Shown here: positions 3,350 to 18,130 of the stretch, in pieces
How the letters are laid out: each line of letters begins with the position of its first letter
Position numbering within the stretch: position 1 is the first letter of the stretch
NCBI RefSeq assembly: GCF_028713515.1
Contig: NZ_JAQTOD010000001.1
Location: 434,001-498,000 of the forward strand
Direction of reading: 5' to 3'
Source: Sulfurimonas sp.
GTDB lineage: Bacteria > Campylobacterota > Campylobacteria > Campylobacterales > Sulfurimonadaceae
DNA length: 64,000 bases
The notes under the pieces: generated by a model
What the model saw: the letters and a program-made list of their open reading frames with translations, nothing else
Databases searched by the model: none
Told to the model about the DNA's origin: nothing
Position numbers and translations under genes: made by a program

Positions 3350-3352
3350 AAT

Positions 3353-5874: not shown

Positions 5875-5945
5875 TATAATAACTCCTCACTCTGAATTTT
5901 CTCATTTTAACACAATATTAATTTCTAGTTGTTGAGATTTAATGC

Positions 5946-6674
5946 TTATTTTATAAACGGAATTATCATAGGTACTTGTTTTTGATAGGCTTCATACTTT
6001 TTGCCAATAGTTTTTGCTAAGTCTTTCTCTTCAAAATATAAACCAATAAAGATATAGCTAGTGAAAGTGACTGATAGCATCAAGTGGGTGTATGACATGT
6101 TTGGTGTTGCCCAGATTCCAATGAGCGTTCCTAGCTGTATAGGATGTCTTATAAATTTATAAAAAGAGCTCTCTTTAAATGTAATTTCTGGTGCAACTCT
6201 ATTTTTAAGATTTAGATAGACTTGTTCTAGCCCAAAGAGTTCAAAATGATTGATTAAAAATGATGAGACTACGGAAAATGTCCAACCAAAAATATAGATA
6301 GATATCAATATAATCTGTCCCACTTGATTATCCACTCGCCAAAGATAACCGTCAATGCCTTGCCAGTAGATGCAAATTAGAGATAAAAAGACTCCTGAAA
6401 CCAAAACATATGTACTTCGTTCCGCTGATATCGGTATAAACTTTGTTATATACTTTTTAAATGATTGTCGCGCCATGATGGAGTGTTGTAGAGCAAATAA
6501 AATAACAAGAGTGATATTTATAGTCAGTGCTGATTCAAAAGAGGTTGTCTGCATAGAGTCAATATGTGATGGAAGAAAATCCCACGAGCCAACAAATAAC
6601 AAAAACCAAACCAATGTGGAAAGACCAAACAGATAAGCAAAAATTCCATATATAAAAATGATTAAATGCTTCAT
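5946..6674 (-). CDS. mddA: MddA-like methanethiol S-methyltransferase (NnrU/ICMT family membrane protein)
   Basis: 242 aa with five or six membrane helices. The conserved motifs are ALQHSIMAR (about 63-71), ERSTYVL, a STFLINHFELFGL-like segment (FLINHFELFGLEQVY) and the C-terminal FIRHPIQLGTLIGIWATP with EEKDL, which bind S-adenosylmethionine in this fold. These match methanethiol S-methyltransferase, which makes dimethyl sulfide from methanethiol. An AGAGG ribosome binding site precedes the ATG at 6674. The proposed left edge of the mobile element lies only about 40 bases upstream, so insertion may have replaced this gene's native promoter region. A more general isoprenylcysteine-methyltransferase-like role cannot be excluded. 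Confidence 0.75.
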   Translation of the reverse strand: MKHLIIFIYGIFAYLFGLSTLVWFLLFVGSWDFLPSHIDSMQTTSFESALTINITLVILFALQHSIMARQSFKKYITKFIPISAERSTYVLVSGVFLSLICIYWQGIDGYLWRVDNQVGQIILISIYIFGWTFSVVSSFLINHFELFGLEQVYLNLKNRVAPEITFKESSFYKFIRHPIQLGTLIGIWATPNMSYTHLMLSVTFTSYIFIGLYFEEKDLAKTIGKKYEAYQKQVPMIIPFIK

Positions 6675-6711
6675 TAGATTACCTCTATTGCGGAATTATT
6701 GACCATATAAT

Positions 6712-6720
6712 TTTTCTATA
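6712..6720 (+). repeat. Candidate left attachment core (TTTTCTATA)
   Basis: A 9-base perfect match to 16731-16739 at the other edge of the element. It lies 38 bases upstream of the mddA start. The sequence is AT-rich, so a chance match is quite possible. What favours it is that it overlaps a -10-like TATAAT (6717-6722) and sits next to a perfect palindrome. Confidence 0.35.
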
Positions 6721-6726
6721 ATCCTC

Positions 6727-6746
6727 ATCAAGTTTTTAAACTTGAT
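6727..6746. repeat. Perfect 9-bp inverted repeat at left end of element
   Basis: ATCAAGTTT, two T bases, then AAACTTGAT. It begins five bases after the TATAAT at 6717-6722. In the joined circle it would cover the predicted transcription start, so it could be an operator for self-repression or the first stem of a leader RNA. It has no T tract typical of a terminator. Confidence 0.6.
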
Positions 6747-6807
6747 TTAATTTCTTAATAAATCTCTTAAAAACCTACTATTATTTCACATTCAAAGCTT
6801 ACATATA

Positions 6808-6897
6808 ATTCAGGGTCTTAGAACTCTTAAGGAAAATAAAGCTGGTGAAATAAACCTTGACAGAATTCAGAGCCTTAGAGCTCAAATAGAAAATAAG
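6808..6897 (+). repeat. Two imperfect direct repeats in the recombinase leader
   Basis: Copy one starts at 6808 and copy two at 6865, a 57-base period. Both read ATTCAG, two variable bases, CTTAGA, one variable base, CTC, and after a few bases GAAAATAA. Differences are mostly transitions (G/A, T/C), which would keep RNA pairing partly intact. Two copies with unique sequence between is not a CRISPR array. Two similar loops are what a bridge RNA would have (target and donor loops), but binding sites for the recombinase are an equal option. Confidence 0.6.
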
Positions 6898-6905
6898 GTT
6901 TCACT

Positions 6906-7871
6906 ATGAATATTCTCGGCATAGATGTATCAAAAGACACTCTTGACTGTTGTTTGCTTATAAATAATGAGCCATATTATCATATTTTTGATAATAGTGA
7001 AATTGGTTTTTTTAATCTCCTAGTTATTTATAATAATTTTAAAGTTACATCTGTAGGATTTGAATCCACTGGAAATTATCATAAAAAACTTGAAAGGTAT
7101 CTATCAAGTAACGGACTTAACCCTTATATTTTAAAACCAATCGTTATCGCAAATTTTAGGAAAGTTTTATCGCTACATGGTAAAACTGATAAAACAGATA
7201 GCTATGCTATTGCTCAATTTTTAGCAGTTGGCGATTTGTCTGATTATTTATCGTTTCCAATTCGTGACACATTTACTCCTATTTTATCATCATTGATTTT
7301 GTTAGATAAACAAATAAGACAAACTAAAAACTCAATTCACGCTATAGAATTAAATCCTGATGTTTCCACTGTTTTAACTGATTTAGAAGATGTTAAAGAT
7401 TATCTTACAACTACTAAAGACAGAGTTCAAAAAAACACTATAGATTTACTCTATAAGTTATGTCCTGAAGCTAAACAAGTTAAAAACGATATTGACGGTG
7501 TAGGCGATTCTCTTCTACTTTATTTAATCCCTATGCTTTACGATCATTTCGACAAATTTACATTAAAGCAAATAAACGCTTTTTTCGGTTTGAATCCTAT
7601 CTCATATCAGAGCGGTACTTCTGTATATAAAAAAGACAAAATCTCAAAACGAGGTGACCCACAAGTCTTAAAACTGTTGTATATGTCTGCAATCTCTGCT
7701 CTTCGTACTAATGAGATTTTAAAAGATAAATATAAAAGGTTAAAGGACAACGGCAAGCCCTCAAAGGTTGCATTAGTTAGCGTTATGGCTCATCTATTAA
7801 AAGCTATAGTTATTAAGCTCTCGCACTACACAAAGAGAACTTTAAAAGAGAATACAAAAATTAAATTATGA
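6906..7871 (+). CDS. IS110/Piv-family DEDD recombinase (transposase/integrase)
   Basis: 321 aa, normal for the family. The N-terminal RuvC-like DEDD domain shows GIDVSK (Asp7), FESTGNYH (Glu53) and KTDKTDSYAIA (Asp95 and Asp98). The C-terminal Transposase_20 domain begins at IDGVG (about 196) and has SYQSGTSVYKKDKISKRG with the candidate catalytic Ser236. Such enzymes move DNA without inverted termini or long target duplications. In Neisseria filamentous prophages and others a Piv/IS110 enzyme serves as integrase, and I infer the same here. The ATG follows an AAGG ribosome binding site. The stop overlaps the next gene's start (ATGA). Confidence 0.93.
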   Translation: MNILGIDVSKDTLDCCLLINNEPYYHIFDNSEIGFFNLLVIYNNFKVTSVGFESTGNYHKKLERYLSSNGLNPYILKPIVIANFRKVLSLHGKTDKTDSYAIAQFLAVGDLSDYLSFPIRDTFTPILSSLILLDKQIRQTKNSIHAIELNPDVSTVLTDLEDVKDYLTTTKDRVQKNTIDLLYKLCPEAKQVKNDIDGVGDSLLLYLIPMLYDHFDKFTLKQINAFFGLNPISYQSGTSVYKKDKISKRGDPQVLKLLYMSAISALRTNEILKDKYKRLKDNGKPSKVALVSVMAHLLKAIVIKLSHYTKRTLKENTKIKL

Positions 7872-8035
7872 ACAAAGTAGATATTCAAATATATAAGGGT
7901 TTTTTAAAACTCTTAAAGGAGGGCAAATCAATTAATAAAAGTAGTTTGGCAAGAGAGTCATTTGTCTGTAGGCAGACAATACACAATAAAATCGAGAAAC
8001 ACACATTTCAAGATTTAAAAAGAAAGGTTTACTAA
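7868..8035 (+). CDS. Small helix-turn-helix protein (55 aa)
   Basis: This short frame starts in the ATGA overlap with the recombinase stop and ends in a TAATG overlap with the next gene, so it fits an operon without a gap. The peptide has a likely helix-turn-helix: INKSSLARESFVCRQTIHNK at about residues 22-41, preceded by a helical N-terminus and followed by a basic tail. AAAGGAGGGC inside the gene at about 7915 is not its own ribosome binding site. It could regulate the element's early genes or assist the recombinase. No named family recognised. Confidence 0.65.
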   Translation: MNKVDIQIYKGFLKLLKEGKSINKSSLARESFVCRQTIHNKIEKHTFQDLKRKVY

Positions 8036-8415
8036 TGAGTAATGATATAAAAGATTTTGACAAAGTTCCGACAAGTGTCGCAGATGTAGAAGAGATAACA
8101 AGAAGATATATGGAAAAAATCTCTAAAAATGAGATTAATCTAGCTGGTCAAGTTCGTGCTAAAAATCAAACTCAGCCAAAGCCAAAGGTTGATAAGCAAA
8201 CTAAAGAGCCAATCTTTAATGAAGATGGAAGTCCTGCTTATTGGAACTCTTATTATTATGTAGTTCTTGCGTTTGAGGGTGGTGAACTAGATGTCCAAGT
8301 AGAAGAAAAATGGTTTGATGATTTACAAATAGGTATGCGTGTTCTATTTACTGGTGCTAAAGGTCTTAAATTTGGAAAGATTCAAGATGTTTTTCACTCG
8401 TATGTAATTCTTTAA
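8035..8415 (+). CDS. Putative ssDNA-binding protein (OB-fold-like)
   Basis: 126 aa, acidic C-terminal half, no membrane segment. Predicted beta-rich from about residue 35 onward: LAGQVRAKNQT, YYYVVLAFEGGELDVQVEE, MRVLFTGAKGLKFGKI. This length and pattern recall single-stranded-DNA-binding proteins that sit next to the replication gene in filamentous phages (gV-like), and the position upstream of the Rep gene agrees. The sequence match is not strong enough to name the family. SD-like AGAAAGG precedes the start. Confidence 0.45.
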   Translation: MSNDIKDFDKVPTSVADVEEITRRYMEKISKNEINLAGQVRAKNQTQPKPKVDKQTKEPIFNEDGSPAYWNSYYYVVLAFEGGELDVQVEEKWFDDLQIGMRVLFTGAKGLKFGKIQDVFHSYVIL

Positions 8416-8464
8416 AATTAGAATTTCCAGTGTTCCCCCACTGGTTTAACAAGGGGGTCTAATT
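8416..8464 (+). other. Structured intergenic segment upstream of rep (terminator or replication origin candidate)
   Basis: Nested inverted repeats: AATTAGA (8416-8422) pairs with TCTAATT (8458-8464); inside, CCCCC (8435-8439) pairs with GGGGG (8453-8457). A competing hairpin CCAGTG/CACTGG (8427-8432 with 8439-8444) has the C run in its loop, so the two folds exclude each other. It follows the stop of the putative ssDNA-binding gene directly. Without a T tract it is a weak terminator candidate. A rolling-circle nick site or a translational/attenuation switch for the next gene are alternatives. Confidence 0.45.
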
Positions 8465-8499
8465 AGCCAAAAAATTAAAAGTGCCAAAAGGGTTTCAAA

Positions 8500-8736
8500 G
8501 TGGATAAATTAAAAATAATCGAATCTGTTAAAAAAAATTCAGCTGATAAAACTGCTTTTAGTTTGAAGTTGCCCTCATCTTTAAAAGATGATATTCAAAA
8601 GATATGCATTAAAGAATCTATATCAATGAATTCTTTAATTGTTGCTGTTTTGTCTGATTTTGTCAAAGATGATGATTGTGAAGATGATTTTTCTTGTCCT
8701 TATAAAAATATTTCTGAATTTTTAAAGATTAGTTAA
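8500..8736 (+). CDS. Ribbon-helix-helix DNA-binding protein
   Basis: 78 aa starting at GTG (8500). Residues 17-50 fit an Arc/CopG ribbon-helix-helix: a short strand KTAFSLKLP, then helix SSLKDDIQKICIKES, turn ISMN and helix SLIVAVLSDFVKD. The tail is acidic with two cysteines. Such small proteins control copy number or promoter activity in rolling-circle replicons, and this one overlaps the Rep gene start by one base (TAATG). Specific target unknown. The ribosome binding site is weak (AAAGGGTTTC). Confidence 0.65.
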   Translation: MDKLKIIESVKKNSADKTAFSLKLPSSLKDDIQKICIKESISMNSLIVAVLSDFVKDDDCEDDFSCPYKNISEFLKIS

Positions 8737-10136
8737 TGTCAGTAAACATAATCTCACAACACATTGACACTCTAAAAACTCATTACTACATATCACGCAG
8801 TATTGATGATTTAAAATTTCATACATTTAACAGAGCATTAGATGATTTAATCTCATTAAAAAAACAAGCTCAAAGTATCAGAAACGATTATGGCGATACT
8901 AAATCTTTAAACTATGATTTTGGCACTTACAAATTTAATATACTGCCTACTTCCGTAACTGGTTTTAGTGTAGTTATTGCAAACAATGATGTATCTATAG
9001 CACTTAGAAAAAGTAAAAATAAGGTTATGCCTAGTCCAGTTGTAAAAGTAGAGTTTAGAGCTGAGTTTCTAGCTAGAAAAGGCTACATCAAAGCCTTAGA
9101 AATTGTAAATAAATTTATAAGTGATTTTATCTTAGCTGATTATAAAATCTCAATAAGTGAGATTCATTTAGCAACTGATATTCAAGGCTATAACTTTACG
9201 CATTTAGATTTTTTCAAAATAAAAACAAGGTCTCGAAATGCACAAACACATGAGGATATTACAGATAGTTCCAAAGCCTCCGCCTTTGGTGGTGTTACTT
9301 CTTTCTCTGGCTTTAGCTTTGGCGGTGGAGATTATCACTTAAGGGTTTACAATAAAACTACTGAGATAAATAAATTTAAAAATAAAGCCTTTGCTAAAAC
9401 TCTACTTTGGGAACATAAACTTAATTACACCCCTGACGCTACAGTCTGGCGTATTGAGGTACAAATAAGAAGAGCTAAATTAAAAAAGCTTGTTAATTCT
9501 GATGGTAGTACTCTTGATGATTACTCAAATCTTTTAAACGCTATTCCTGATTTATGGAATCGTTCAATGACTGATTTTAGATTAAAAGATATTTCTGACA
9601 ATGATGTTTTCAACATCTTAAGAGGTAAACGAACTTTAAAAAATGGTACTGAGAAAATAATTTCAAGAAATGCAATATATAAGATTTTCAACCGTGCTGA
9701 TAATGTTAAGTTCTGGGATGATATGAAGCTATGGAACTCTTACAACTCAAAGCAGATTAGTACCGCATTTAATATGCCAAAGTCTGGTTCATTTGATTAT
9801 GTAACAAATAGCATAAAGAGCGTTTTTTCAACTGTAGCTAAACATTACGGTTCACTAGACCAAGAGACAATTACAAGAGCATTTATGGAAGCAAACAGAG
9901 AAAATTTCAAGAAGAAAAATATATCACTAATTGAAGATTCTATGAATAAGCAGTTAGATTGGTTTGAACGCACTGATTATTTAGTTTCAAACGGTGTTCT
10001 AAATACTCTAAGCTATAAACATTTAGAACAAAATATCAGCGATATTGTTTATGATAGTGTCGCTCCCCTCTACGATACAAACTTTAGTCCTGAGTTTGTT
10101 AATCGCTTAGATACTAGGCGAAGTTATGGTTTTTAA
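8736..10136 (+). CDS. Rep_trans-type rolling-circle replication initiator (RstA-like)
   Basis: 466 aa. Family hallmarks of Pfam Rep_trans / phage replication initiation factor are seen: ISEIHLATDIQG at about 140-151 (usual R.DLA.D..G), YHLRVYNKTTEI at about 205-216 (usual .RIYDK..E, holding the active tyrosine), and WRIEVQIRRAKLKKL at about 240-254. The C-terminal 200 residues are helical and more variable. It would nick the plus-strand origin and start rolling-circle replication, as RstA does in CTXphi-type phages. It follows the RHH gene with a one-base overlap. Confidence 0.82.
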   Translation: MSVNIISQHIDTLKTHYYISRSIDDLKFHTFNRALDDLISLKKQAQSIRNDYGDTKSLNYDFGTYKFNILPTSVTGFSVVIANNDVSIALRKSKNKVMPSPVVKVEFRAEFLARKGYIKALEIVNKFISDFILADYKISISEIHLATDIQGYNFTHLDFFKIKTRSRNAQTHEDITDSSKASAFGGVTSFSGFSFGGGDYHLRVYNKTTEINKFKNKAFAKTLLWEHKLNYTPDATVWRIEVQIRRAKLKKLVNSDGSTLDDYSNLLNAIPDLWNRSMTDFRLKDISDNDVFNILRGKRTLKNGTEKIISRNAIYKIFNRADNVKFWDDMKLWNSYNSKQISTAFNMPKSGSFDYVTNSIKSVFSTVAKHYGSLDQETITRAFMEANRENFKKKNISLIEDSMNKQLDWFERTDYLVSNGVLNTLSYKHLEQNISDIVYDSVAPLYDTNFSPEFVNRLDTRRSYGF

Positions 10137-10159
10137 ATTAAAAAAAAGGAGTCCAAAAA

Positions 10160-10531
10160 ATGGATAAAAATTATGGCAAATTCTTCAAAAAAGAGGAGTT
10201 TGATTGTAAATGTGGTTGCGGTCTCAACAATATGCAACAATTTTTGTTAAACATATTAAACACTGCTAGAGATTATGCAGGTATGCCGTTTTTCTTAAAT
10301 CGTGGCTGTTCTTGCGTTGCTCATAATAAACTTGTTGGCGGTTTGCCAAACTCTGCACATCTTGACGGTTTTGCTGTAGATATTCATATATCAAACAGTG
10401 AGCAAAGATTTAAGATTGTTTTTGGTCTTTTAAAAGCTGGTTTCAAACGAATCGGCATATATAAAGACTTTGTTCACGCTGATGTTGATATGTCTAAACC
10501 TATGAATATCATATTTTATAACGAGGGTTAA
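10160..10531 (+). CDS. M15-family zinc peptidase (putative endolysin)
   Basis: 123 aa. The zinc motif is intact: SAHLDGFAVD at 65-74 (His67, Asp74) and FVHADVD at 104-110 (His106, Asp108). The N-terminal EEFDCKCGCGLNN is typical of small phage-type M15_3 peptidases, which cut the peptide cross-links of murein. There is no signal peptide, so release would need another protein or assembly into a particle. AAAAAAAGGAG precedes the ATG. Standard filamentous phages leave by extrusion and do not need a lysin, so its presence points to lysis or a virion-borne wall-cutting step. Confidence 0.85.
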   Translation: MDKNYGKFFKKEEFDCKCGCGLNNMQQFLLNILNTARDYAGMPFFLNRGCSCVAHNKLVGGLPNSAHLDGFAVDIHISNSEQRFKIVFGLLKAGFKRIGIYKDFVHADVDMSKPMNIIFYNEG

Positions 10532-10533
10532 AA

Positions 10534-10848
10534 ATGAAAGATAATTTAATGGAATTATTAAGAGATGGCACTGTTTCAAGTGTTCTTCAAAATATTGGCA
10601 AGGTTGCAACGATTTTTAATCCTGCAATAGGTGGTGGTTTAATGCTTGCAAGCAATTTAACATCTAATATGGAAACTGTGGATGATGATTTTCTATCTGA
10701 TTCTGTTGTCGGTTTAAGTGGTACTGCTATGCGTCTTGATAGGATGATAGCTTCTCAAAATGTTGATTTTGAACAACTAAAAATGTTGTCAGAAAATCTT
10801 AAATCTATGTCTGCTTTTATGGGTAAGACATCAAAAATGCTTAGTTAA
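10534..10848 (+). CDS. Small protein with hydrophobic segment, next to M15 peptidase
   Basis: 104 aa, unrecognised. One hydrophobic, glycine-rich stretch at about residues 22-45 (KVATIFNPAIGGGLMLASNL), flanked by an amphipathic N-terminal helix and a C-terminal helical part rich in Met and Ser. It begins 2 bases after the peptidase stop. A membrane-active partner (holin-like or entry protein) is possible from position, as is a minor structural protein. I see no motif that decides. Confidence 0.6.
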   Translation: MKDNLMELLRDGTVSSVLQNIGKVATIFNPAIGGGLMLASNLTSNMETVDDDFLSDSVVGLSGTAMRLDRMIASQNVDFEQLKMLSENLKSMSAFMGKTSKMLS

Positions 10849-10860
10849 GGAGCAAAAAAA

Positions 10861-11307
10861 ATGTTAGTTTATAGAAAAGATTTAGATACCCCTTTGAGTT
10901 CTTTGCAAGTTGATAAAAATTTTGAGTATTTAATGCAGTTTTCTGTTTTGTTAAATAGTTGTTCTTATTTGCTTGCTCGTGAGTGTGCTTCACTTATGAT
11001 TGATTCTTCTGATTATGTTTTGTCTGGTGTTCAATCGTTTAATATTTTGTTAAATGAAACTGAGTTTAAATGCTTTTCTTTGCAGTCTGGTAGTTTTGTT
11101 GATATTACTTTAATTAGAGGTTCTGCGATTCCTGAATGTTTAGAACTTGCTTTAGTTGACGAAAACGGTACTTATTTTGATTTTGACATTAATCGAGCTG
11201 ATTCTAATCCTGTTCCCTTTGATTGTTTTCTTTTAGTTAAGATGAGTGATATTGAAGTATCTTTTACTTTTTCTGATGTTGCTATTGTTGTGGCTCCTCA
11301 AACATGA
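10861..11307 (+). CDS. Hypothetical element protein, T-rich codons
   Basis: 148 aa, unrecognised, no membrane segment. Predicted beta-rich in the second half (FKCFSLQSGSFVDITLIRG; DCFLLVKMSDIEVSFTFSD), with an alternation of hydrophobic residues like a jelly-roll or fibre subunit. A perfect AAGGAGC ribosome binding site lies 6 bases before the ATG. Third codon positions are mostly T. It overlaps the next gene's start by 4 bases. A structural role is inferred from position only. Confidence 0.65.
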   Translation: MLVYRKDLDTPLSSLQVDKNFEYLMQFSVLLNSCSYLLARECASLMIDSSDYVLSGVQSFNILLNETEFKCFSLQSGSFVDITLIRGSAIPECLELALVDENGTYFDFDINRADSNPVPFDCFLLVKMSDIEVSFTFSDVAIVVAPQT

Positions 11308-11714
11308 TTTACTCTATTGATTATTCATCTGGTTATAGCGAGGGTGATAATAATCCCTCTAGTGTTGTTAATTGTGATTTAACTGATATAAATAATAAGC
11401 TTGTTGAACTAATTAGTGTCTTGGATAGAATAGAAAATAAGATTTCTTCTCTTCCAACTGCTGACGGTATTAAAGTTTATTTTGATAATAATATTCCATT
11501 TGTTGACGATATGAGCTTAAAAGCTTTTAAAGCTGGCGATTTGGTTGATGTTGTTGGTTTAGATAACATTCCTTGTATTGTTGAGAGTTCTCATATGCTC
11601 CCTGTTGATTTAACTAATTTTATAATTGTTTATACAGTGAGTTATATAGTAGATAGTGTTAAATATACTTCAAATTTTCCATCTGGCCATATTTCTTTTC
11701 ATAAGGTTTTATAA
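11304..11714 (+). CDS. Hypothetical element protein
   Basis: 136 aa, unrecognised. A short helical, possibly coiled-coil piece (TDINNKLVELISVLDRIENK, about 26-45) is followed by a beta-rich domain with FKAGDLVDVVGLDNIPCIVESS. It has 4-base and 1-base overlaps with its neighbours, so it belongs to the same translational unit. Codon use is strongly T-ending like the gene before it. No function can be given. Confidence 0.65.
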   Translation: MIYSIDYSSGYSEGDNNPSSVVNCDLTDINNKLVELISVLDRIENKISSLPTADGIKVYFDNNIPFVDDMSLKAFKAGDLVDVVGLDNIPCIVESSHMLPVDLTNFIIVYTVSYIVDSVKYTSNFPSGHISFHKVL

Positions 11715-12703
11715 TGTCTATAAAAAGTAAGTATGAGATTGCAGTTGTTAATTATGGTTCAAATTCTAATACTAACCCTCAGAAATATTATCCTAATGTT
11801 GTACCTGATATTAATCCTTTTTTAACTCCTGAAAATATTAGAAAATATGGAGGTAATATTCCTTATGTCTCTACTGGTCTTGATGTTGTAGACTTTCTCG
11901 TAGATGGTGCTAAATCAATTTTAAGAAAAAAAGGTATATCAGATTATGAGCCTTTGCCATCATCTGATATAACTCCCTCCGCTCCTGATTCTACTCCTTA
12001 TAATCCTAAGCCATTATCTGGAGAACTTAGTTTAAATAGAATTTTAAGAGATTCTAGTGAACAAAGCTTAGAGATTGCTAAAAATATAAATGAGGGTAAT
12101 GTTTTAGTTGCTACTGTTTTATATGAGGGTTTTCAAGCTTTAAGAGATAGTTCTTCTGAGATTGTTACTGTTTTGGCTGGCATAGCTAATGAGATGGCTT
12201 TATCAAATGAAATTAGAGGAGCTTTTGAAAGTGCTAATCTAGACAATTTTAATAATTCATTAGAGTGGGAGGGTTATAAATTTTCTAAAATGGAAGAGGG
12301 TGCTACTTTAACGACAATACATTCGCAAAACGCTTTAGATACAACTATTGCATATAATGAGTTAACTTTAGAAAATCAACTTAAACTAAACTCTACTTTG
12401 GAAGATTTAGTTTCTGTAACTGCAAGAACCAGAGATGAACTTGCTTTAGTTACTAAAAAACTAGATTACTATACCAAAGAAACCACAGAAATACAACTAG
12501 AAAATTTCGGCAATGATATCCCTGCTTTATCTCCTCAAATGTACAGAGCACATAAAGACGCCGTAGTAGCTAAAAAAAATAGTGATGAGAATACCTTTGA
12601 GTTAGATGATGATGATTATAACTCAATCTTTAAAATGCCAGATTTATCTGAGTTGTTGAAATATCCAAGAATTACAGAATATCTTAAGGAGGTTGCTCCT
12701 TGA
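11714..12703 (+). CDS. Large hypothetical protein with proline-rich N-terminus and helical C-terminus
   Basis: 329 aa, unrecognised. Residues 1-110 are rich in Asn, Pro, Ser and Tyr and look extended; the rest is mostly helical, with a likely coiled coil at about 205-262 (LTLENQLKLNSTLEDLVSVT and onward) and an acidic run ELDDDDY near 298. No membrane helix and no Walker A. It might be a minor virion or adsorption protein. It is the longest unknown gene of the element and ends in an ATGA-like overlap with the next gene. Confidence 0.65.
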   Translation: MSIKSKYEIAVVNYGSNSNTNPQKYYPNVVPDINPFLTPENIRKYGGNIPYVSTGLDVVDFLVDGAKSILRKKGISDYEPLPSSDITPSAPDSTPYNPKPLSGELSLNRILRDSSEQSLEIAKNINEGNVLVATVLYEGFQALRDSSSEIVTVLAGIANEMALSNEIRGAFESANLDNFNNSLEWEGYKFSKMEEGATLTTIHSQNALDTTIAYNELTLENQLKLNSTLEDLVSVTARTRDELALVTKKLDYYTKETTEIQLENFGNDIPALSPQMYRAHKDAVVAKKNSDENTFELDDDDYNSIFKMPDLSELLKYPRITEYLKEVAP

Positions 12704-13464
12704 GTATGAATTCAATAGGTCAAAATTCTGCTAGTGAGTTTTTTGAAAACATTTTATATGCAACTGCATATCCAGAGGCTCAAAATCAAATTAAAGATTT
12801 TACAAAAGATATACATAGCGATATTGTCAAAGAGGCTTTAGCAAGTTCTATCACAATTTTAACAAGCGGTTTAATTTTCATGATGATTCAAAAACAAGAA
12901 AATTTGATTAATGCTGTTTTTTTGAAAGCTTCTGGTTTAGTTGCTCTTATCTTAGGTTCATCAGTTGCAACAAAAGCTAAAGAAAAATTACAGGGTAAAT
13001 TAAAAGGTGTAAAACTTTTTAAAAAATTAGGTTTATTTCAAACTTCTTTTAGTGATGATATAAATTTATCTAAAGTTGTCGTTGAGGGCACTACTGCGAT
13101 TGTTACCGCTAATGGTTCAACAACAAACAGCGTTCAAATGTATAACACTGGTATTGCTGAAAAAGAGCATTTAGTCAACAAAGAGAAACTTCATCACGAT
13201 TTAGGTAACTCTATGGCTTCAAGATATAATGAAACTTTAATGTTTAAACTGTTTACAAAGTCATTTACTGCAACTGACGAACAAATCATCAGAAAAGTTT
13301 TAGGTCGTGATACTGCCACCATTGTAAATGTCGAAGATATGAATAAAATAGCTGATTTTATGTTTGTAAAAGATAGTGCAGGTAATATATCTGGTTTGTC
13401 TGAGCAAATGTTTCAACTCATAAACGGATTAGGCTTTGTTCATAAGCCTACATCTGCATTATAG
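12700..13464 (+). CDS. Hypothetical membrane-associated element protein
   Basis: 254 aa from TTG at 12700, which lies 7 bases after a perfect AAGGAGG; the ATG at 12706 is the alternative. Two hydrophobic segments at about 48-66 (SSITILTSGLIFMMI) and 70-90 (AVFLKASGLVALILGSSVA) are followed by a lysine-rich stretch and then a soluble domain. No P-loop is present, so it is not a Zot/pI morphogenesis ATPase although it holds the position where one might be expected. Function unknown. Confidence 0.65.
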   Translation: MSMNSIGQNSASEFFENILYATAYPEAQNQIKDFTKDIHSDIVKEALASSITILTSGLIFMMIQKQENLINAVFLKASGLVALILGSSVATKAKEKLQGKLKGVKLFKKLGLFQTSFSDDINLSKVVVEGTTAIVTANGSTTNSVQMYNTGIAEKEHLVNKEKLHHDLGNSMASRYNETLMFKLFTKSFTATDEQIIRKVLGRDTATIVNVEDMNKIADFMFVKDSAGNISGLSEQMFQLINGLGFVHKPTSAL

Positions 13465-13477
13465 AAAAGGGGTTAAA

Positions 13478-13609
13478 ATGGCAATTAATTGTGAAGATAT
13501 GGCACTAGAAGAGTTAACAAGATTAAGAGATATTCAGAGGTTATTGCAATCTCTTGTTATTGCACTTATGGGCGATTTGTCTAGTGTATCCTTAGAGCAG
13601 ATTTTATAA
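13478..13609 (+). CDS. Very small element protein (43 aa)
   Basis: Starts at ATG 13478 after AAAAGGGG, stops at 13607-13609, and the next gene starts one base later. The peptide is helical and amphipathic (LEELTRLRDIQRLLQSLVIA) with three acidic residues at the ends. The clean spacing and ribosome binding site support that it is real. No family recognised. Confidence 0.5.
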   Translation: MAINCEDMALEELTRLRDIQRLLQSLVIALMGDLSSVSLEQIL

Positions 13610-13610
13610 T

Positions 13611-13988
13611 ATGATTCCTCTTTCTTGTATCTGTGATAAAATTGTTAGACTTAGTGTTTCTTTTTCACAATCTGATATTTTTGTAGATGGTGTTAAAAAA
13701 TATTGTAATTTGAGATTAATATTTAATGGAGATATAAAAAAATGTATTTATTCTACTCTTTTTTCAAATCTTGATTTTCTTGCTTCTCAACCTGTTTATG
13801 ATTCTAATCGTATTAGTTATGTTTTTAGAGATTTAATTTATATTGGTGGTAATAATTTTAAAATTACTTTAGATTATTATAGTCGATTAGCTTCTGGTTT
13901 TCCTTATACTTGGAAGACTACTACAGTATCTCTTAGTGGTAGTTCTGTTTTGTCTTCTTATTCTTCTATTTTGGAAATTACTACATAA
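13611..13988 (+). CDS. Hypothetical element protein, beta-rich
   Basis: 125 aa, unrecognised, Ser/Tyr/Thr-rich and predicted mostly beta (VRLSVSFSQSDIFVDGVKK; FKITLDYYSRLASG). Codons end overwhelmingly in T, the strongest case in the element. It overlaps the next gene by one base. A particle or receptor-binding component is a guess from composition. Confidence 0.6.
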   Translation: MIPLSCICDKIVRLSVSFSQSDIFVDGVKKYCNLRLIFNGDIKKCIYSTLFSNLDFLASQPVYDSNRISYVFRDLIYIGGNNFKITLDYYSRLASGFPYTWKTTTVSLSGSSVLSSYSSILEITT

Positions 13989-14344
13989 TGCCAAACTATA
14001 AAATACAATTAAAACAAGGTAAACGCACTCTAGTTGCTCATGGCGAATTTAAAAATGTTGCTTGTGTTCTAGCTCACTATAACACTTTAACAACTATGCA
14101 AGTATCAGAGATATTAAAAGTTGAGTATATAGACGAAACAACTCCGCCTATTGATGATTTCAATTACAGAAGTTTATATAAGGGATTTTTAAAAAATGAT
14201 GCTTCTAGAAAATCCAGACAAATAGTCATGCAGAATCTCAAACTTTCAAAAGATGAAGTTGATATCTTTAATTCTGCTAAAATAAATATGGAAATTGATG
14301 GCTTAAAAGTAGATAGTGTAACTAGCTCTCTGTTTAAAAAATAG
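13988..14344 (+). CDS. Hypothetical element protein
   Basis: 118 aa, unrecognised, basic at the N-terminus (KIQLKQGKRTLVAHGEF), no membrane segment. The N-terminal third looks beta-rich, the rest helical with Lys/Arg clusters (KNDASRKSRQIVM). Nucleic-acid binding is possible. It is the last gene of the rightward block that begins at the recombinase; the 620 bases after it hold only a gene on the other strand. Confidence 0.6.
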   Translation: MPNYKIQLKQGKRTLVAHGEFKNVACVLAHYNTLTTMQVSEILKVEYIDETTPPIDDFNYRSLYKGFLKNDASRKSRQIVMQNLKLSKDEVDIFNSAKINMEIDGLKVDSVTSSLFKK

Positions 14345-14555
14345 ATTCTTGCGTTTCTTTTCCTATCGATAGTATAAATTTACCTATTTTGTAAGTTATT
14401 ACTATTGATATAATTGTTAATATTAAAAAGTTAAAATAGCTATTTCCTATATTATGCTTTTCCATTGATGCAGTAAAGCCAATTACAAAAATTATTGCAT
14501 TTAAAGCTATAAATATCATTAAAGACATTTTAAACAAACTCAAAATCAACCTCAT
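14334..14555 (-). CDS. Small two-helix membrane protein on the opposite strand
   Basis: 73 aa, the only probable minus-strand gene in the element. Two membrane helices at about 8-28 and 42-61, with a short basic loop. A GAGGG ribosome binding site sits 6 bases before the ATG at 14555. It overlaps the end of the preceding plus-strand gene by 11 bases. A lone small membrane protein transcribed against the phage genes suggests a lysogenic function such as superinfection exclusion, but this is inference and the gene itself is not certain. Confidence 0.45.
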   Translation of the reverse strand: MRLILSLFKMSLMIFIALNAIIFVIGFTASMEKHNIGNSYFNFLILTIISIVITYKIGKFILSIGKETQESIF

Positions 14556-14964
14556 AAATTCCCTCTTATTCTAATCTCCTAAAATTCTACCTAAATTTTA
14601 ATCAAATTAATCTTCTCTTATTTTCTAAAGCTTTTTTCTTCGGCTGTGGCTTTGCCACTTGCGAAGATCCAAAAAAGCGAAAAATCTCATCTTTCATAAA
14701 TCTTTCCATCAAACTAAAGACACTTTTTTTCTTAAAAAAAGGGTTACAAGCGATAGTGCGATAGGGCGTAAATAAAGCCGAATATCCTCAAACCTCAATT
14801 TCTCAAAAAGTTTTTACACTCTTTGCTTCTATGTGCAACTTGTACCCCTTTAAAACTATTGTATCAACGCTCTTTTTCTCTTAAAAAGTTACACTTTACA
14901 AACAAAAATTATTTATATAAATTTTCTCGTTTTAAAAAAACAAATCCAAAAAAAAGGTTTATAT
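14556..14964. other. Intergenic region with hairpins before the putative coat genes
   Basis: About 410 bases without a convincing gene on either strand. It contains one strong interrupted hairpin (14637-14667), a GC-richer stretch with GCGATAGTGCGATAGGGCG at about 14751-14769, and, nearer the right end, AT-rich sequence suited to a promoter for the gene at 14965. In ssDNA phages the one long gene-free region holds minus-strand origin, packaging signal and late promoter. Which of these applies cannot be told from sequence alone. Confidence 0.5.
14637..14667. other. Interrupted hairpin in the element's main intergenic region
   Basis: TCTTCG (14637-14642) pairs with CGAAGA (14662-14667); after a 3-base symmetric internal loop, GTGGC (14646-14650) pairs with GCCAC (14654-14658) around a TTT loop. 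This is the most stable structure in the element by eye. It lacks a long T run on the plus strand but a run of T lies on its left side, so on the minus strand it could end the transcript. Packaging signal or replication origin are alternatives. Confidence 0.6.
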
Positions 14965-15312
14965 ATGGCATATATTAAACAAAGTATCAAGGGCAAATCA
15001 GTTGCTCATATTACTGTTGACGCTACAACTGCCGTCCTTGCAGGTTTGCAGGCTATTTTAGAGGGTGAAGTCATGACTTATGACTTGAAAGCTTCTGGTG
15101 GTTCTGTTTCTGTTTATCCAGCTTCTCTTAATAAAAAAAAGATGAGTTGTGGCGATAGAGCTACTAAAGTAAGTTGTTCTTTCACAATTCCGCACGCTAA
15201 ATCTACTGCTAGAATCTCTCAGATTGAAGCTGTTGTTATTGGTGCATTCGATGCGTCTTATGATGTAAACACTAAAGCAGATTATGCAAATCTTCTTTAT
15301 GATAGAAACTAG
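14965..15312 (+). CDS. Putative coat protein 1 (paralogue of next gene)
   Basis: 115 aa, no signal peptide or membrane helix, rich in Ala, Ser, Val and Lys. Its segment ATTAVLAGLQAILEGE (20-35) lines up without gaps with ASALAFADAVLDGE of the next protein, and FTIP (73-76) aligns with FVIP (75-78) at exactly the same distance, so the two are probably tandem duplicates. A long upstream control region and balanced codon choice suggest high expression. I infer a capsid or filament subunit. It has two cysteines at 62 and 71. No known coat family recognised. Confidence 0.6.
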   Translation: MAYIKQSIKGKSVAHITVDATTAVLAGLQAILEGEVMTYDLKASGGSVSVYPASLNKKKMSCGDRATKVSCSFTIPHAKSTARISQIEAVVIGAFDASYDVNTKADYANLLYDRN

Positions 15313-15323
15313 GAGGTAAAAAA

Positions 15324-15665
15324 ATGGCAAAATCTTTAATTATCAATAAATTAGGCGAAAAACGCTTATTTTCTTATGTTCCTGCCGGTCATGCTTCTGC
15401 ACTTGCATTTGCTGACGCTGTTCTTGATGGTGAGTATGATGTTTTTGAAGAGACTTCAAAAATCGGCTCTGATGCTGTTTCAACTGCTCGTGATGTTACC
15501 GTCATGCTTCAAAATGAGACTACTTTCGCAAAAACTTATTTGCGTTTTGTAATTCCAACTTCTAAAGACGAGGGTGATGTTGTTATTGCTCTTCAGGGTA
15601 AAACTTTTAACGGTGTAAAAGCTGATAAAGTTGTTATTACTTCAATGAGAGCAACTAGCTACTAA
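15324..15665 (+). CDS. Putative coat protein 2 (paralogue of previous gene)
   Basis: 113 aa, preceded by a perfect AGGAGGT ribosome binding site and followed by a hairpin with a T-rich tail. These are signs of a very highly expressed gene. Small, Ala/Val/Thr-rich, no membrane helix, so unlike the short signal-bearing gVIII major coat protein of inoviruses. Homology to the preceding gene is visible over about residues 22-82 (see there). The main structural protein of the particle is my best inference. Confidence 0.6.
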   Translation: MAKSLIINKLGEKRLFSYVPAGHASALAFADAVLDGEYDVFEETSKIGSDAVSTARDVTVMLQNETTFAKTYLRFVIPTSKDEGDVVIALQGKTFNGVKADKVVITSMRATSY

Positions 15666-15681
15666 TCATTTTTTTACAATT

Positions 15682-15699
15682 TGCTACTTTTTTGTAGCA
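15682..15699 (+). terminator. Intrinsic terminator after putative coat gene 2
   Basis: TGCTAC, six T bases, GTAGCA, followed by TTTTGTATTTT. The stem is short (6 bp), so read-through into the spike gene is likely. A leaky stop after the coat genes would give more coat than spike protein, as known after gene VIII of filamentous phages. Confidence 0.6.
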
Positions 15700-15738
15700 T
15701 TTTGTATTTTATAATATTTTTTAATAAGGCTTTAAATT

Positions 15739-16425
15739 ATGACAAGCAATAACGCTCTTGAGCTTCTTTTGACTGTTAAGGGCATTTTAGATTCTGAAAT
15801 CACTCCTATTTTTGACTTGCAATATCCTACTCTTTTAGATTTAGAAAACGCTCAAAACTCTTTAATTCAGATGAACACTTTTTTAACTTCTATTATTGAT
15901 AACCCTCCTATTTGTGTTGATGGTATTCAAGGTGAAAAAGGCGATAAAGGTGATACAGGTTCGATACCTTTTCAAAAAATATTATCTACTTCGATACAAC
16001 AAACTACATTATCTACTCTTGTTGATATAAATGAGTTATTTTTATCTCTTCTTCCTGATAGTGTTTATGAAATTTACTGTTCTGTAACCTTTCAAAGTTC
16101 TGTAACTACTACTGGTTTAAATCTTGGTTTATTAACTCCTTTGGGTTCTCAAAATTTAGTTGAGATTGTTGTCCCTATTGTTAATATACAATCATCTACT
16201 CGATTGGCTTTAAATCTTCCTAGTGCTTTAATTCCTTTAAATTCTGGTAATGTAAAAGGCACTGGTGTAACTTCTGCTAATTCTAATCATACAGCAATTA
16301 TAAAAGGTATTATAATTACTGGTTCAAACTCTGGTAATTGTCAAATACAATTTTCCAGCGAAGTTAGTGGTTCCGCTGTTACTATTCAATCAGGTTCATA
16401 TCTTCATTTAATAAAGTTGGCTTAG
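15739..16425 (+). CDS. Collagen-like putative spike/fibre protein
   Basis: 228 aa. A helical N-terminal third (1-60), then a short collagen-like run GIQGEKGDKGDTG (about 64-76), then a Ser/Thr/Asn-rich beta domain (80-228) of the kind found in trimeric spike or tail-fibre tips. GXY repeats trimerise such proteins in many phages. There is no tail module here, so a vertex or tip spike binding the host surface is the likely role. AAGGC lies upstream of the start. The next gene begins directly after its stop. Confidence 0.7.
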   Translation: MTSNNALELLLTVKGILDSEITPIFDLQYPTLLDLENAQNSLIQMNTFLTSIIDNPPICVDGIQGEKGDKGDTGSIPFQKILSTSIQQTTLSTLVDINELFLSLLPDSVYEIYCSVTFQSSVTTTGLNLGLLTPLGSQNLVEIVVPIVNIQSSTRLALNLPSALIPLNSGNVKGTGVTSANSNHTAIIKGIIITGSNSGNCQIQFSSEVSGSAVTIQSGSYLHLIKLA

Positions 16426-16617
16426 ATGGGTATTGATTCCTCTGCTGTTATTGCTTTACTCATTGGTATTTTTACAATACTTTCTTATATTGCCAAGATG
16501 ATTTACGGCGTTAGTTCTCGTTTCACTTCTCTCGACCTCCGCTTATCACATTTAGAAAAGAATCAACAAACTATTATTAGAGATATTGAAAAAATAGAAA
16601 ATAGAGTTTATAAATAG
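16426..16617 (+). CDS. Small membrane protein with coiled coil, last gene of element
   Basis: 63 aa. One membrane helix at about 7-28 (AVIALLIGIFTILSYIAKMI), then a charged helical tail with heptad pattern (LRLSHLEKNQQTIIRDIEKI). It starts one base after the spike gene's stop. Similar architecture occurs in small phage membrane proteins (minor coat, holin- or spanin-like), but there is no motif to choose between them. Confidence 0.6.
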   Translation: MGIDSSAVIALLIGIFTILSYIAKMIYGVSSRFTSLDLRLSHLEKNQQTIIRDIEKIENRVYK

Positions 16618-16712
16618 TTATAATTAGGCTTTTAAAGCTCTATATTGATAAAAACATAAAAAAACAGTTAAAATTTTAAAAATAAAGAATTTGTATTATA
16701 AAGTCAATTTAC

Positions 16713-16741
16713 TTGACATTTATCACAGAATTTTCTATATT
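16713..16741 (+). promoter_or_regulatory. Near-consensus sigma-70 promoter pointing out of the element's right end
   Basis: TTGACA at 16713-16718, a 17-base spacer, TATATT at 16736-16741. A -35 match this good is unusual in Campylobacterota, whose promoters usually lack it. GTCAA (16703-16707) and TTGAC (16713-16717) form an inverted repeat over the -35, a possible operator. As integrated it would transcribe against the 3' end of radA. In a joined circle the -10 would come from the left end (TATAAT). Confidence 0.6.
16731..16739 (+). repeat. Candidate right attachment core (TTTTCTATA)
   Basis: Nine bases identical to 6712-6720. It lies within the spacer and -10 region of the outward promoter, 45 bases from the radA stop. 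AT-rich and short, so chance is a real alternative. Confidence 0.35.
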
Positions 16742-16783
16742 ATATCGTATAGTTAAATTTATTTGATTTTGTGCAGTTTAATG

Positions 16784-18130
16784 TTAATACCACTGCAAAA
16801 GTTTTGTAACTTCATCAACAATAAATGTTTTTATTTTTGTTTTCTCCAGTGGTTTTTTTGGTACCAGAGCTTTTGAAATATTTTGCATTGATGCTTCTTT
16901 TAGCCTAATATCTAGAGCATATACATCTCTAACATCGCCAACAAGAGAGACTTCGCCTATAAAAACGCTATCTTTTGAGATCGCACGATTTCTAAAACTG
17001 CTGATAATGGCAGCCAAAACTGCTAAGTCAGCTGAAGTTTCAGTTATTTTGATTCCACCAGTTATGTTTATAAATACATCATAACCAGAGAGTGGAATCT
17101 CTAATTTTCTCTCAAGAAGTGCTAAAAGCATATTTAACCTGTTGTTGTCAAAGCCAGTCGCTTGTCTTTTTGAGTTTGCTGTGTGAGATTCTGAAACTAG
17201 TGCTTGAACTTCTAAGATTATTGGGCGAGAACCCTCCATGATTACCGTAAGTGCAGAACCTGCTTGTTCTGAGTTGCGGTTGAAAAATCTTGATGCAACA
17301 TCGGTGGCAGAGATAAGCCCATTATGTTTCATTTCAAATACCCCAATTTCACTGGTCGGTCCAAAACGATTTTTAAACCCTCGCAATATTCTAAGTTCCT
17401 GTGAGCTATCGCCTTCAAAATATAAAACCGTATCAACCATATGTTCCAGCACTCGTGGTCCAGCGATTGAACCCTCTTTTGTGATGTGCCCGATAATAAA
17501 AATAGCTATTCCCTTATCCTTTGCAATTCGCATCAAATCAAATGTAATCTGTCTAACTTGAGTAACAGAACCAGGAGCTGATGAGATGTTTTCGGAGTAC
17601 ATGGTTTGGATAGAATCTATGATTAAAAATTCATACTCTCTATGCTCTAGCTCAATTAAAACCTGCTCTAGTCTTATTTCACTTAGCAGAAAAAGAGTGT
17701 CTTGGTTTGAACCAAGTCTATTTGAGCGAAGTTTTATCTGTCCGCTTGATTCCTCACCAGTTACATAAAGAACATTTTTATTCAGTGATGCTATATTTGC
17801 TCCAACTTTCAGTAGAAGTGTTGATTTGCCAACTCCAGGACTTCCTCCAATTAGCGTAAGAGAACCAGGGACAATACCGCCACCCAAAACCATATCTAAC
17901 TCTTTATCTAGTGAACTATATCTAAAAACCTCACTCTCTATGATCTTGTTCATGCTGATTGCTTTTGAAGCTGAGTTTGAGGCAATTTTGCTGTTTTTAA
18001 CTACCTCTTGCTGATGTTCATTGAGCTCTATAAATGAGTCCCAAGCGTTGCAATTTGTGCATTTTCCCATCCATTTTGGAGTTGTAAACCCACAGTGTTG
18101 ACACTCAAATAGTGCTTTAATCTTTGCCAT
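16784..18130 (-). CDS. radA: DNA repair protein RadA (Sms)
   Basis: 448 aa, full length. An N-terminal zinc finger (CQHCGFTTPKWMGKCTNC, about 9-27) is followed by a RecA-like core with Walker A GGSPGVGKST near 90-99, the RadA-specific KNRFG motif (FKNRFGPTSEIG) near 255, and a C-terminal Lon-protease-like domain without the protease Ser-Lys pair apparent. RadA helps branch migration in recombinational repair and natural transformation. The 3' end faces the mobile element, which did not damage it: the C-terminus KLLQWY looks natural. Confidence 0.96.
   Translation of the reverse strand: MAKIKALFECQHCGFTTPKWMGKCTNCNAWDSFIELNEHQQEVVKNSKIASNSASKAISMNKIIESEVFRYSSLDKELDMVLGGGIVPGSLTLIGGSPGVGKSTLLLKVGANIASLNKNVLYVTGEESSGQIKLRSNRLGSNQDTLFLLSEIRLEQVLIELEHREYEFLIIDSIQTMYSENISSAPGSVTQVRQITFDLMRIAKDKGIAIFIIGHITKEGSIAGPRVLEHMVDTVLYFEGDSSQELRILRGFKNRFGPTSEIGVFEMKHNGLISATDVASRFFNRNSEQAGSALTVIMEGSRPIILEVQALVSESHTANSKRQATGFDNNRLNMLLALLERKLEIPLSGYDVFINITGGIKITETSADLAVLAAIISSFRNRAISKDSVFIGEVSLVGDVRDVYALDIRLKEASMQNISKALVPKKPLEKTKIKTFIVDEVTKLLQWY

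What the first reader, a model, noticed from the sequence alone, without database searches (positions are those of the whole stretch)
6712..16739. Undescribed ssDNA-phage-like element: Rep_trans initiator and M15 lysin, no Zot, IS110-type integrase
The gene set (RC initiator, possible ssDNA-binding protein, RHH regulator, M15 peptidase, small unknowns, duplicated small abundant-looking proteins, collagen-like spike) suggests a ~10 kb ssDNA phage. The pI/Zot ATPase that defines inoviruses is absent, and no other Walker-A protein exists in the element. Size and gene types recall Finnlakeviridae (ssDNA, rolling-circle Rep, lytic enzyme), but no protein here is recognisably a double-jelly-roll capsid. 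It may be a new phage family or a satellite.
Basis: partly seen in the sequence, partly recalled or inferred. Interest (0 to 1): 0.9.

Follow-up and report, generated by a model that had tools for sequence, protein, structure and literature searches.

The report
Phage-like element with RNA-guided integration
A 10-kb phage-like element of Campylobacterota bacteria, with coat-like genes that resemble nothing known, appears to choose where it enters the chromosome with a small guide RNA, which would make it a rare case of a virus-like element whose integration is RNA-guided and can be retargeted.

Summary
A ~10.0 kb element (6715-16734 ±2) has an IS110-type recombinase, an inovirus-type Rep, an M15 endolysin, an Arc-like repressor, two homologous small proteins and a collagen-like protein; no Zot, no Walker-A ATPase. 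The Rep is in 25 of 398 genomes of the order, own included, with a shared gene order. Rep, g118 and g254 have no match in 50,697 phage records nor Rep in 72,556 plasmids.
In 19 elements the RNA shares 7-11 nt with that element's own left flank, in 12 with its right flank; 0 of 20,000 re-pairings reach this (also when limited to the target-loop part). Two copies in one genome, identical over ~11.9 kb, differ in the guide/recombinase cassette and each fits its own site. Sister genomes hold scarless empty sites of relatives, seven with a CT core. Integration is very probably RNA-guided. That it is a virus is likely, not proven. Inoviridae membership fails on Zot; Finnlakeviridae is unsupported.

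The parts
6715..16734 (+). whole integrated element, 10,020 bp (ends ±2 because of T tracts)
   Evidence: ends located by comparison with relatives and guide matches; exact empty sites known only for relatives L069 and L073
6699..6714 (+). left target flank TTGACCATATAATTTT
   Evidence: shares CATATAATT (9 nt) with the RNA at 6802-6810
6717..6722 (+). -10 box TATAAT of the circle-junction promoter (in the left end)
   Evidence: joins TTGACA at 16713 in the circle
6729..6905 (+). predicted bridge RNA: 5' stem-loop 6732-6774, target-binding loop 6782-6852, donor-binding loop 6853-6900
   Evidence: RNA fold; 7 of 27 consensus pairs with two-sided changes in 5 sequences; the 5' end was placed by me just after the -10 box, not measured
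6802..6810 (+). left target guide CATATAATT
6831..6837 (+). right target guide GGAAAAT (6 nt plus one G-T wobble to the right flank ATTTTCT; weak)
   Evidence: read by eye; the automatic tests did not pick it
6860..6867 (+). left donor guide ACAGAATT
   Evidence: matches RE end ATCACAGAATTTT
6886..6894 (+). right donor guide ATAGAAAAT
   Evidence: reverse complement of ATTTTCTAT at the RE-LE junction
6906..7871 (+). IS110-family DEDD recombinase (321 aa)
   Evidence: Pfam; NCBIfam 'IS110 family RNA-guided transposase' E 2.9e-38, 131.9 bits, under its 140 cut-off; IS621 and ISCro4 chains E 6.8e-13 and 2.9e-15; D7 E53 D95 D98 S236 invariant in 14 sequences
7868..8035 (+). small HTH-like protein
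   Evidence: 4 other loci; function inferred
8035..8415 (+). 126-aa protein in SSB position, function unproven
   Evidence: 19 other loci, no family hit
8500..8736 (+). Arc-like RHH regulator
   Evidence: PHROG 582 E 1.6e-8
8736..10136 (+). rolling-circle replication initiator (466 aa)
   Evidence: profile hits phiOH16 gII Rep E 5.7e-15
10160..10531 (+). M15 peptidase (endolysin); relatives such as L043 have a phage lysozyme here
   Evidence: L043
10534..10848 (+). 104-aa conserved protein, holin-like by position only
   Evidence: 13 other loci; hydropathy maximum only 1.27
10861..11714 (+). two unknown proteins (148 and 136 aa)
   Evidence: ORFs; the 136-aa protein has one relative, L038
11714..12703 (+). 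329-aa protein; weakly related to proteins in 3 other loci
12706..13464 (+). conserved protein g254 with one hydrophobic segment
   Evidence: 21 other stretches, L032 and its continuation L033 counted apart; AF2 mostly helical but poor, pLDDT 52.6
13988..14344 (+). conserved 118-aa protein g118, perhaps related to CP1
   Evidence: hhalign probability 62.5 to CP1, 19.8 to CP2
14630..14678 (+). long hairpin, candidate ssDNA packaging signal or origin
   Evidence: DNA fold z -4.0; related hairpins in some relatives
14965..15312 (+). CP1, candidate coat protein
   Evidence: 14 other stretches; homologous to CP2
15324..15665 (+). CP2, candidate coat protein
   Evidence: AF2 pLDDT 91.4; no fold match at E<=0.001
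15739..16425 (+). collagen-like spike/fibre candidate
   Evidence: GIQGEKGDKGDTG run; weak PHROG hits only
16426..16617 (+). 63-aa single-TM protein
   Evidence: hydropathy 2.31
16713..16718 (+). -35 box TTGACA in the right end
16726..16734 (+). left donor / right end CAGAATTTT

Best explanation
This is one member of a family of ~10-12 kb temperate, phage-like elements of Campylobacterota. The element leaves the chromosome as a scarless circle made by its own IS110-type DEDD recombinase. Joining the right end (TTGACA) to the left end (TATAAT) creates a promoter that transcribes a ~177-nt bridge RNA from the left end. The RNA's donor loop pairs with the circle junction, its target loop pairs with a ~14-nt chromosomal site, and the recombinase joins the two at a short core. 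The circle replicates by rolling circle through its Rep, and a late operon (endolysin, g104, g254, g118, CP1, CP2, spike) is presumed to build and release a non-tailed virion. Shown by sequence: ends, empty sites of relatives, guide-target matches, predicted junction promoter and RNA fold, gene conservation. Inferred: transcription, catalysis, ssDNA stage, virions.
For: Recombinase of the IS621/ISCro4 kind with invariant DEDD and serine. Own left flank shared with own RNA: 19 elements, 7-11 nt, sum 179 against at most 142 in 20,000 re-pairings; own right flank: 12 elements, 7-11 nt, sum 112 against at most 106. Limited to the first 60% of the RNA (target-loop part) and with two more right ends: left sum 178 against at most 132, right (14) 123 against at most 109, 0 of 20,000 each; the own RNA is best or tied for 18 of 19 left flanks (13 strictly). 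Predicted promoter across the junction in 12 of 12, spacer 16-18. The RNA folds as a 5' stem plus two loops. Scarless empty sites with a CT core at L069's site in the 7 genomes read, and an empty site of L073 in one. G171: copies identical over ~11.9 kb differ in the left-end/int cassette, and both guides of each fit its own site. S. diekertiae JPD-1: two copies differ most in the target loop (8 of 31 nt against 12 of 196 elsewhere in the left end), each fitting its own site. Phage side: endolysin, conserved late genes, tail-fibre-like collagen protein in a relative, inovirus-like Rep. Contig L054 is the element almost end to end.
Against: No RNA-seq, virion or circle reads were available. The window's own right guide is weak and neither automatic test picked it. 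L034's left match lies outside the target loop; inside it only 6 nt match (one mismatch by eye). For right flanks the own RNA is best or tied in only 8 of 14 (7 strictly), partly because related elements have similar right targets and L039's RNA was cut short by an early start codon. Of 21 IS110 loci set up, L079 and L080 were not in the test. Donor-guide matches (left 6-9 nt in 12, right 7-8 nt in 11 of 12) are reached by shuffles (maxima 8-11), and for L053 and L078 the right one lies at the RNA's end, outside the loop. No empty site for the window. The window RNA's fold energy is not exceptional (z -1.1) and the covariation term is near zero. No capsid fold was recognised; g254 modelled poorly.
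Confidence: 0.82

Rival explanations
1. A satellite that is packaged by a helper phage, for instance the inovirus prophage in the same genome, and has no virion of its own.
For: The host genome holds an inovirus-like region with a Zot match on another contig; the delimited elements lack a Walker-A ATPase.
Against: Of 12 element-bearing genomes tested (of 25), 7 have no Zot match at E<=0.001; the element carries its own endolysin and a conserved multi-gene late region.
Confidence: 0.15
2. An integrative plasmid or IS110 composite element whose late genes are not virion genes.
For: CP1, CP2, g118 and g254 match no known virion family; the family is nearly absent from the virus collections searched.
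Against: Endolysins typed as phage lysis proteins and a tail-fibre-like collagen protein in relative L043; no plasmid match of Rep; no conjugation gene among the window's Pfam hits.
Confidence: 0.2
3. A Finnlakeviridae/Corticoviridae-like icosahedral phage with a double-jelly-roll capsid.
For: Size, replication protein and lytic enzyme.
Against: None of 16 family profiles hits FLiP or PM2 ORFs at E<=10; CP2 is not a jelly roll. Longer proteins remain unmodelled or poorly modelled.
Confidence: 0.04
4. A decayed inovirus that lost Zot.
For: Rep and recombinase match inovirus phiOH16.
Against: Late genes are shared by many loci while 12 delimited elements have no Walker-A protein besides one chance match; no phiOH16 ORF other than Rep and transposase is hit by 16 profiles.
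Confidence: 0.04

Closest known systems
IS621 and other IS110/IS1111 insertion sequences with bridge RNA or seekRNA (PMC11208160 and PMC11187229, passages read)
   Same: DEDD/Tnp recombinase, left-end RNA (~177 nt in IS621) with target and donor loops, promoter across RE-LE, CT core, scarless circle
   Different: here the recombinase is the integrase of a 10-12 kb phage-like element within its early genes; the phage passages of PMC11208160 treat no phage element, and phage, prophage, filamentous and virus were not found in PMC11187229's main text
Inoviruses with an IS110 transposase: Thermus phiOH16/Zuza (PMC11437467, passages read), Acinetobacter Af1 (PMC11209303, passages read), Neisseria Nf (as cited in PMC11437467)
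   Same: IS110 gene next to Rep; profile hits to phiOH16: Rep E 5.7e-15, INT 7.6e-32
   Different: no Zot, no hit to inovirus coat genes, endolysin present
Finnlakeviridae (FLiP, MF361639) and Corticoviridae (PM2, AF155037)
   Same: 9-10 kb circular genome; a putative lytic enzyme (FLiP) or Rep (PM2) in the records
   Different: no hit of 16 family profiles
Campylobacter concisus CON_phi prophages (PMC5025632, passages read)
   Same: small prophages in C. concisus, the host species of L078
   Different: that paper's prophages have zot, an 'integrase' and mostly tRNA attachment sites; no tRNA gene was found in the 20-kb stretches L053, L055, L078 and no Zot match lies at the element in G176 or G244

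Membership tests
IS110 bridge-RNA recombination system | RuvC-like DEDD plus Tnp domain with catalytic serine | tested here: met
IS110 bridge-RNA recombination system | structured left-end RNA with two internal loops | tested here: met
   predicted folds of the window and L062, partly L069; 7 of 27 pairs with two-sided changes; transcription not shown
IS110 bridge-RNA recombination system | target guides match own insertion site | tested here: met
   left 19 elements, right 14; 0 of 20,000 re-pairings. Window itself: left 9 nt, right weak
IS110 bridge-RNA recombination system | donor guides match RE-LE junction | tested here: inconclusive
   matches of 6-9 nt (left) in 12 of 12 and 7-8 nt (right) in 11 of 12, but shuffles reach 8-11 at most and two right matches lie outside the loop
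IS110 bridge-RNA recombination system | scarless insertion at a short core | tested here: met
   empty sites for L069 (CT core, 7 genomes read) and L073 (1 genome); none found for the window
IS110 bridge-RNA recombination system | RNA binding and RNA-dependent recombination | not testable with these tools
   needs biochemistry
Inoviridae / Tubulavirales | pI/Zot morphogenesis ATPase | tested here: not met
   no Zot hit among window proteins, none at element places in 12 genomes, no Walker A in 12 elements except inside one recombinase
Inoviridae / Tubulavirales | short single-TM coat proteins | tested here: inconclusive
   one 63-aa TM protein, no profile match
Inoviridae / Tubulavirales | rolling-circle Rep | tested here: met
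   phiOH16 gII, E 5.7e-15
Finnlakeviridae | double-jelly-roll major capsid protein | tested here: inconclusive
   no FLiP match; CP2 has another fold; larger proteins not modelled well
Finnlakeviridae | sequence relatedness to FLiP proteins | tested here: not met
   16 profiles, no hit at E<=10

The most novel reading that the evidence does not exclude
A family-level lineage of non-tailed, probably ssDNA phages whose coat is built from a new protein fold, and whose lysogeny is RNA-guided: a bridge RNA chooses the attachment site and is made only from the excised circle, and the guide/recombinase cassette is swapped or edited between copies so that one phage can settle at many different sites.
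Probability: 0.5. Interest if true: 0.92.

Novelty: new variant of a known kind. Interest (0 to 1): 0.82.

Why it matters
Phage integrases normally recognise a fixed attachment site through protein-DNA contacts. Here the site appears to be written in a guide RNA that differs between near-identical copies, so lysogeny would be programmable and quickly retargetable. It gives IS110 bridge RNAs a viral role and a natural 10-12 kb cargo, suggests (untested) the same mechanism for the known IS110-bearing inoviruses, and points to an overlooked virus lineage. It can be tested directly with the plasmid assay already used for IS621.

Tried and rejected
Finnlakeviridae/PM2 link: no profile hit. Fold search of CP2: the best PDB rows are ribosomal proteins over half the chain (Z 5.7, rmsd 5.0, 60 aligned; Foldseek best E 0.077) and the best BFVD row has E 0.27; no usable match, which does not prove a new fold. 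g254 model too poor to search. Rfam: no family in 6500-16900 at E<=1. Viral-contig scans with the window Rep, g118 and CP2 found no relative; with the Rep alignment 8 loci, of which L095 is a member; the other 7 show only a Rep match of our families, 5 of them with a c15-type recombinase. Empty site for the window: the right-flank DNA (radA side) is in 58 of 60 genus genomes, own included, but in the 11 relatives read the left side does not match; the left-side gene is in 12 of 60, own included, and was not followed further. Circular contigs: none of 16 short stretches (14 distinct contigs) has an exact terminal overlap of 20-199 nt. Defence models: only weak hits to accessory genes. Searches printed empty L069/L073 comparisons because an alignment file reused the record names; redone. 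For the empty site of L069, 7 of the 16 other genomes with a match were read.
Full report
What was checked. The element at 6712-16739 is real; its ends are at 6715 and ~16734. The Rep occurs once in the window's genome and in 25 of 398 genomes of the order, own included.

Gene content. In 31 stretches fetched around relatives blastp at E<=1e-3 found relatives of the window's proteins in these numbers of other stretches: int 16, SSB-position protein 19, Rep 29, M15 14, g104 13, g254 21, g118 20, CP1 14, CP2 15 (L032 and its continuation L033 counted apart, and some genomes appear twice). The order int-HTH-SSB-Rep-endolysin-g104-...-c10-g254-...-g118-CP1-CP2-small protein-spike recurs. Modules are exchanged: the endolysin is M15 or a phage lysozyme, and 7 loci of the clustered set have the c15 family, a tyrosine recombinase by its member L043; none of these 7 shows the IS110 gene in the gene list. 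Named hosts include Sulfurimonas, Sulfurospirillum, Sulfuricurvum, Aliarcobacter, Campylobacter concisus and Helicobacteraceae. One short contig, L081, is labelled Candidatus Gracilibacteria but carries family SSB, Rep, lysozyme and g104; misbinning is likely but not tested. Loci L082-L094 from other phyla show only distant Reps and c15-type recombinases, none of the late families.

Is it known? No Rep, g118 or g254 match in 50,697 phage records, no Rep in 72,556 plasmid records, and one member in IMG/VR, L095 (pattern-based scans). Paper searches: bridge RNA + IS110 + phage, + prophage, IS110 + inovirus, IS110 + filamentous phage + integration, Campylobacterota + inovirus, CON_phi1/C. concisus/prophage, seekRNA + IS1111, Sulfurimonas + prophage + ssDNA, IS110 + RNA-guided + bacteriophage + integrase, bridge recombinase + phage + integration. 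In the listings and the passages read I saw no report of a bridge-RNA-guided phage or of this element. Preprints and most subscription journals are not held, and most listed papers were not opened, so this is no proof of novelty. IS110 transposases in inoviruses are known.

The recombinase. It matches the IS621 and ISCro4 chains of the PDB (E 6.8e-13 and 2.9e-15). D7, E53, D95, D98 and S236 are invariant in 14 sequences; that these are the catalytic residues is by alignment and recalled knowledge. NCBIfam's 'IS110 family RNA-guided transposase' scores 131.9 bits, under its cut-off of 140.

The guide RNA. In the stretch from left end to recombinase one short region differs strongly between elements and resembles the element's own left flank. 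Of 21 IS110 loci set up, 19 entered the test (not L079, L080; L054 was not set up, having no flanks). The longest stretch shared by each 17-nt left flank and its own RNA is 7-11 nt (mean 9.4); mismatched pairs average 5.8, and 27 of 342 reach 8. For 12 right flanks the reverse complement shares 7-11 nt (mean 9.3); mismatched pairs average 6.4, and 44 of 216 reach 8. None of 20,000 re-pairings reaches the observed sums. A second test, limited to the first 60% of each RNA and with the right ends of L039 and L040 added, gives left 178 (best re-pairing 132) and right 123 (best 109), 0 of 20,000 each; the own RNA is best or tied for 18 of 19 left flanks (13 strictly) and for 8 of 14 right flanks (7 strictly). 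Weak rows: L034 matches only 6 nt in the target loop (one mismatch by eye); the window's right guide (six bases and one wobble, by eye) is not picked by either test; L039's right guide (CTAAAAGAT) falls outside the cut. L079 was read by eye only and seems to fit.

Natural experiments. In G171 two copies share 11,044 bp at 100% and run on to the right end in a further match of 1,210 bp at 99.7% that overlaps the first by about 370 bp, ~11.9 kb in all. Their first ~1.2-1.4 kb (left end, recombinase, and ~0.2 kb that does not align) is only 80% identical; copy 1 has guides AAAACATCCT and CTAAAAGAT, copy 2 TGTGACTACTT and ATGAAAGAT, each fitting its own flanks. In S. diekertiae JPD-1 (L069, L073) the left ends differ at 20 of 227 alignment columns, 8 of them in 31 nt of the target loop; the recombinase genes share 947 of 957 positions. 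Retargeting thus seems to happen both by cassette replacement and by local change (inference).

Ends and empty sites. At L069's site genome G020 (98% identical flank) reads ATCACTC CT TTATTTGG where L069 has ATCACTC CT TGTAAGAT and ATATAAT CT TTATTTGG: scarless, with a CT core. The other 6 genomes read also have the flanks joined at TCACTC CT; in 4 of these (about 80-83% identical) the right-hand alignment starts 14 bases further in. L073's site is empty in G257, where the core reads TT. The IS621 paper (passages) describes a CT core, a promoter reconstituted across RE-LE and a ~177-nt RNA. Here TTGAC(A/T) and TATAAT/TAAGAT/TATGAT come together with 16-18 bp in 12 of 12 junctions. For the window no empty site was found.

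RNA structure. The window RNA folds as a 5' stem-loop plus two loops with terminal hairpins (z -1.1, so the shape, not the energy, is the evidence). L062 folds alike (z -1.7); L069 (z -3.1) shows the target loop clearly, the donor loop only in part. In 5 sequences 7 of 27 consensus pairs show two-sided changes, but the covariation term is near zero and the alignment misplaces the outer target stem. Donor matches fit but are not above shuffles by themselves.

Virus or not. CP1 and CP2 are homologous; g118 is perhaps related. CP2's model is confident (pLDDT 91.4, pTM 0.64) without a significant fold match. In the non-coding stretch before CP1, 5 of 13 elements have a GTGGCTTTGCCAC-like hairpin tip, and L065, L069/L073 and L071 have long hairpins with a GGGAC...GTCCC tip. 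Of six chosen for scoring, z is -4.0 (window), -6.9 (L065), -6.1 (L069), -6.2 (L072), and only -1.9 and -2.0 (L063, L064). It may be a packaging signal or origin of an ssDNA genome (inference). Contig L054 (10,339 bp) is the element with 2 and 4 extra bases at its ends, which suggests a second context such as a free circle or another copy; it is no proof.

Zot. Of 12 element-bearing genomes searched, 5 have a Zot match at E<=0.001 (4 over the cut-off), none at an element. The window's genome has an inovirus-like region on contig 3 (gene names there by eye), so a satellite relation cannot be excluded.

Verdict. RNA-guided integration: very probable (about 0.9). A self-sufficient new phage lineage: likely (about 0.6).

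Noticed in passing
L148 (G000:C3:116000-128000), 2518-9406: The same genome carries an inovirus-like region with a 398-aa protein at the Zot match; 432-aa secretin-like and 651-aa gIII-like neighbours are named by eye.
   Followed up: partly
window 14630-14678; L064 ~17640; L065 ~16510; L069 ~17190; L072 ~16420: Long hairpins in the non-coding stretch before CP1, candidate packaging signal or origin.
   Followed up: partly
L032 5984 to L033 5076 (G114:C15): Two tandem copies of the element; the second lacks most of its left end and recombinase.
   Followed up: partly
L054 (G345:C14): Contig that is the element almost exactly end to end, possible free form or repeat.
   Followed up: partly
L048; L095: Inverted duplicate of the Rep half of a related element (L048 arms 5.5 kb, 99% identical; mirrored genes in L095).
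   Followed up: no
L036 11215-12063; L062 8422-9402; L079 17716-18441: Accessory genes inside relatives: C5-cytosine methylase, PAPS-reductase-like, Mrr-type endonuclease. A phosphoribosyltransferase at L066 18275 lies just outside that element's right end (18252).
   Followed up: no
L081: Contig labelled Candidatus Gracilibacteria holds family SSB, Rep, lysozyme and g104 genes; misbinned contig or a real jump, not tested.
   Followed up: no
L069 and L039 left flanks: Some target sites look like ribosome-binding sites or starts of host genes on the reverse strand; seen by eye, not tested.
   Followed up: no
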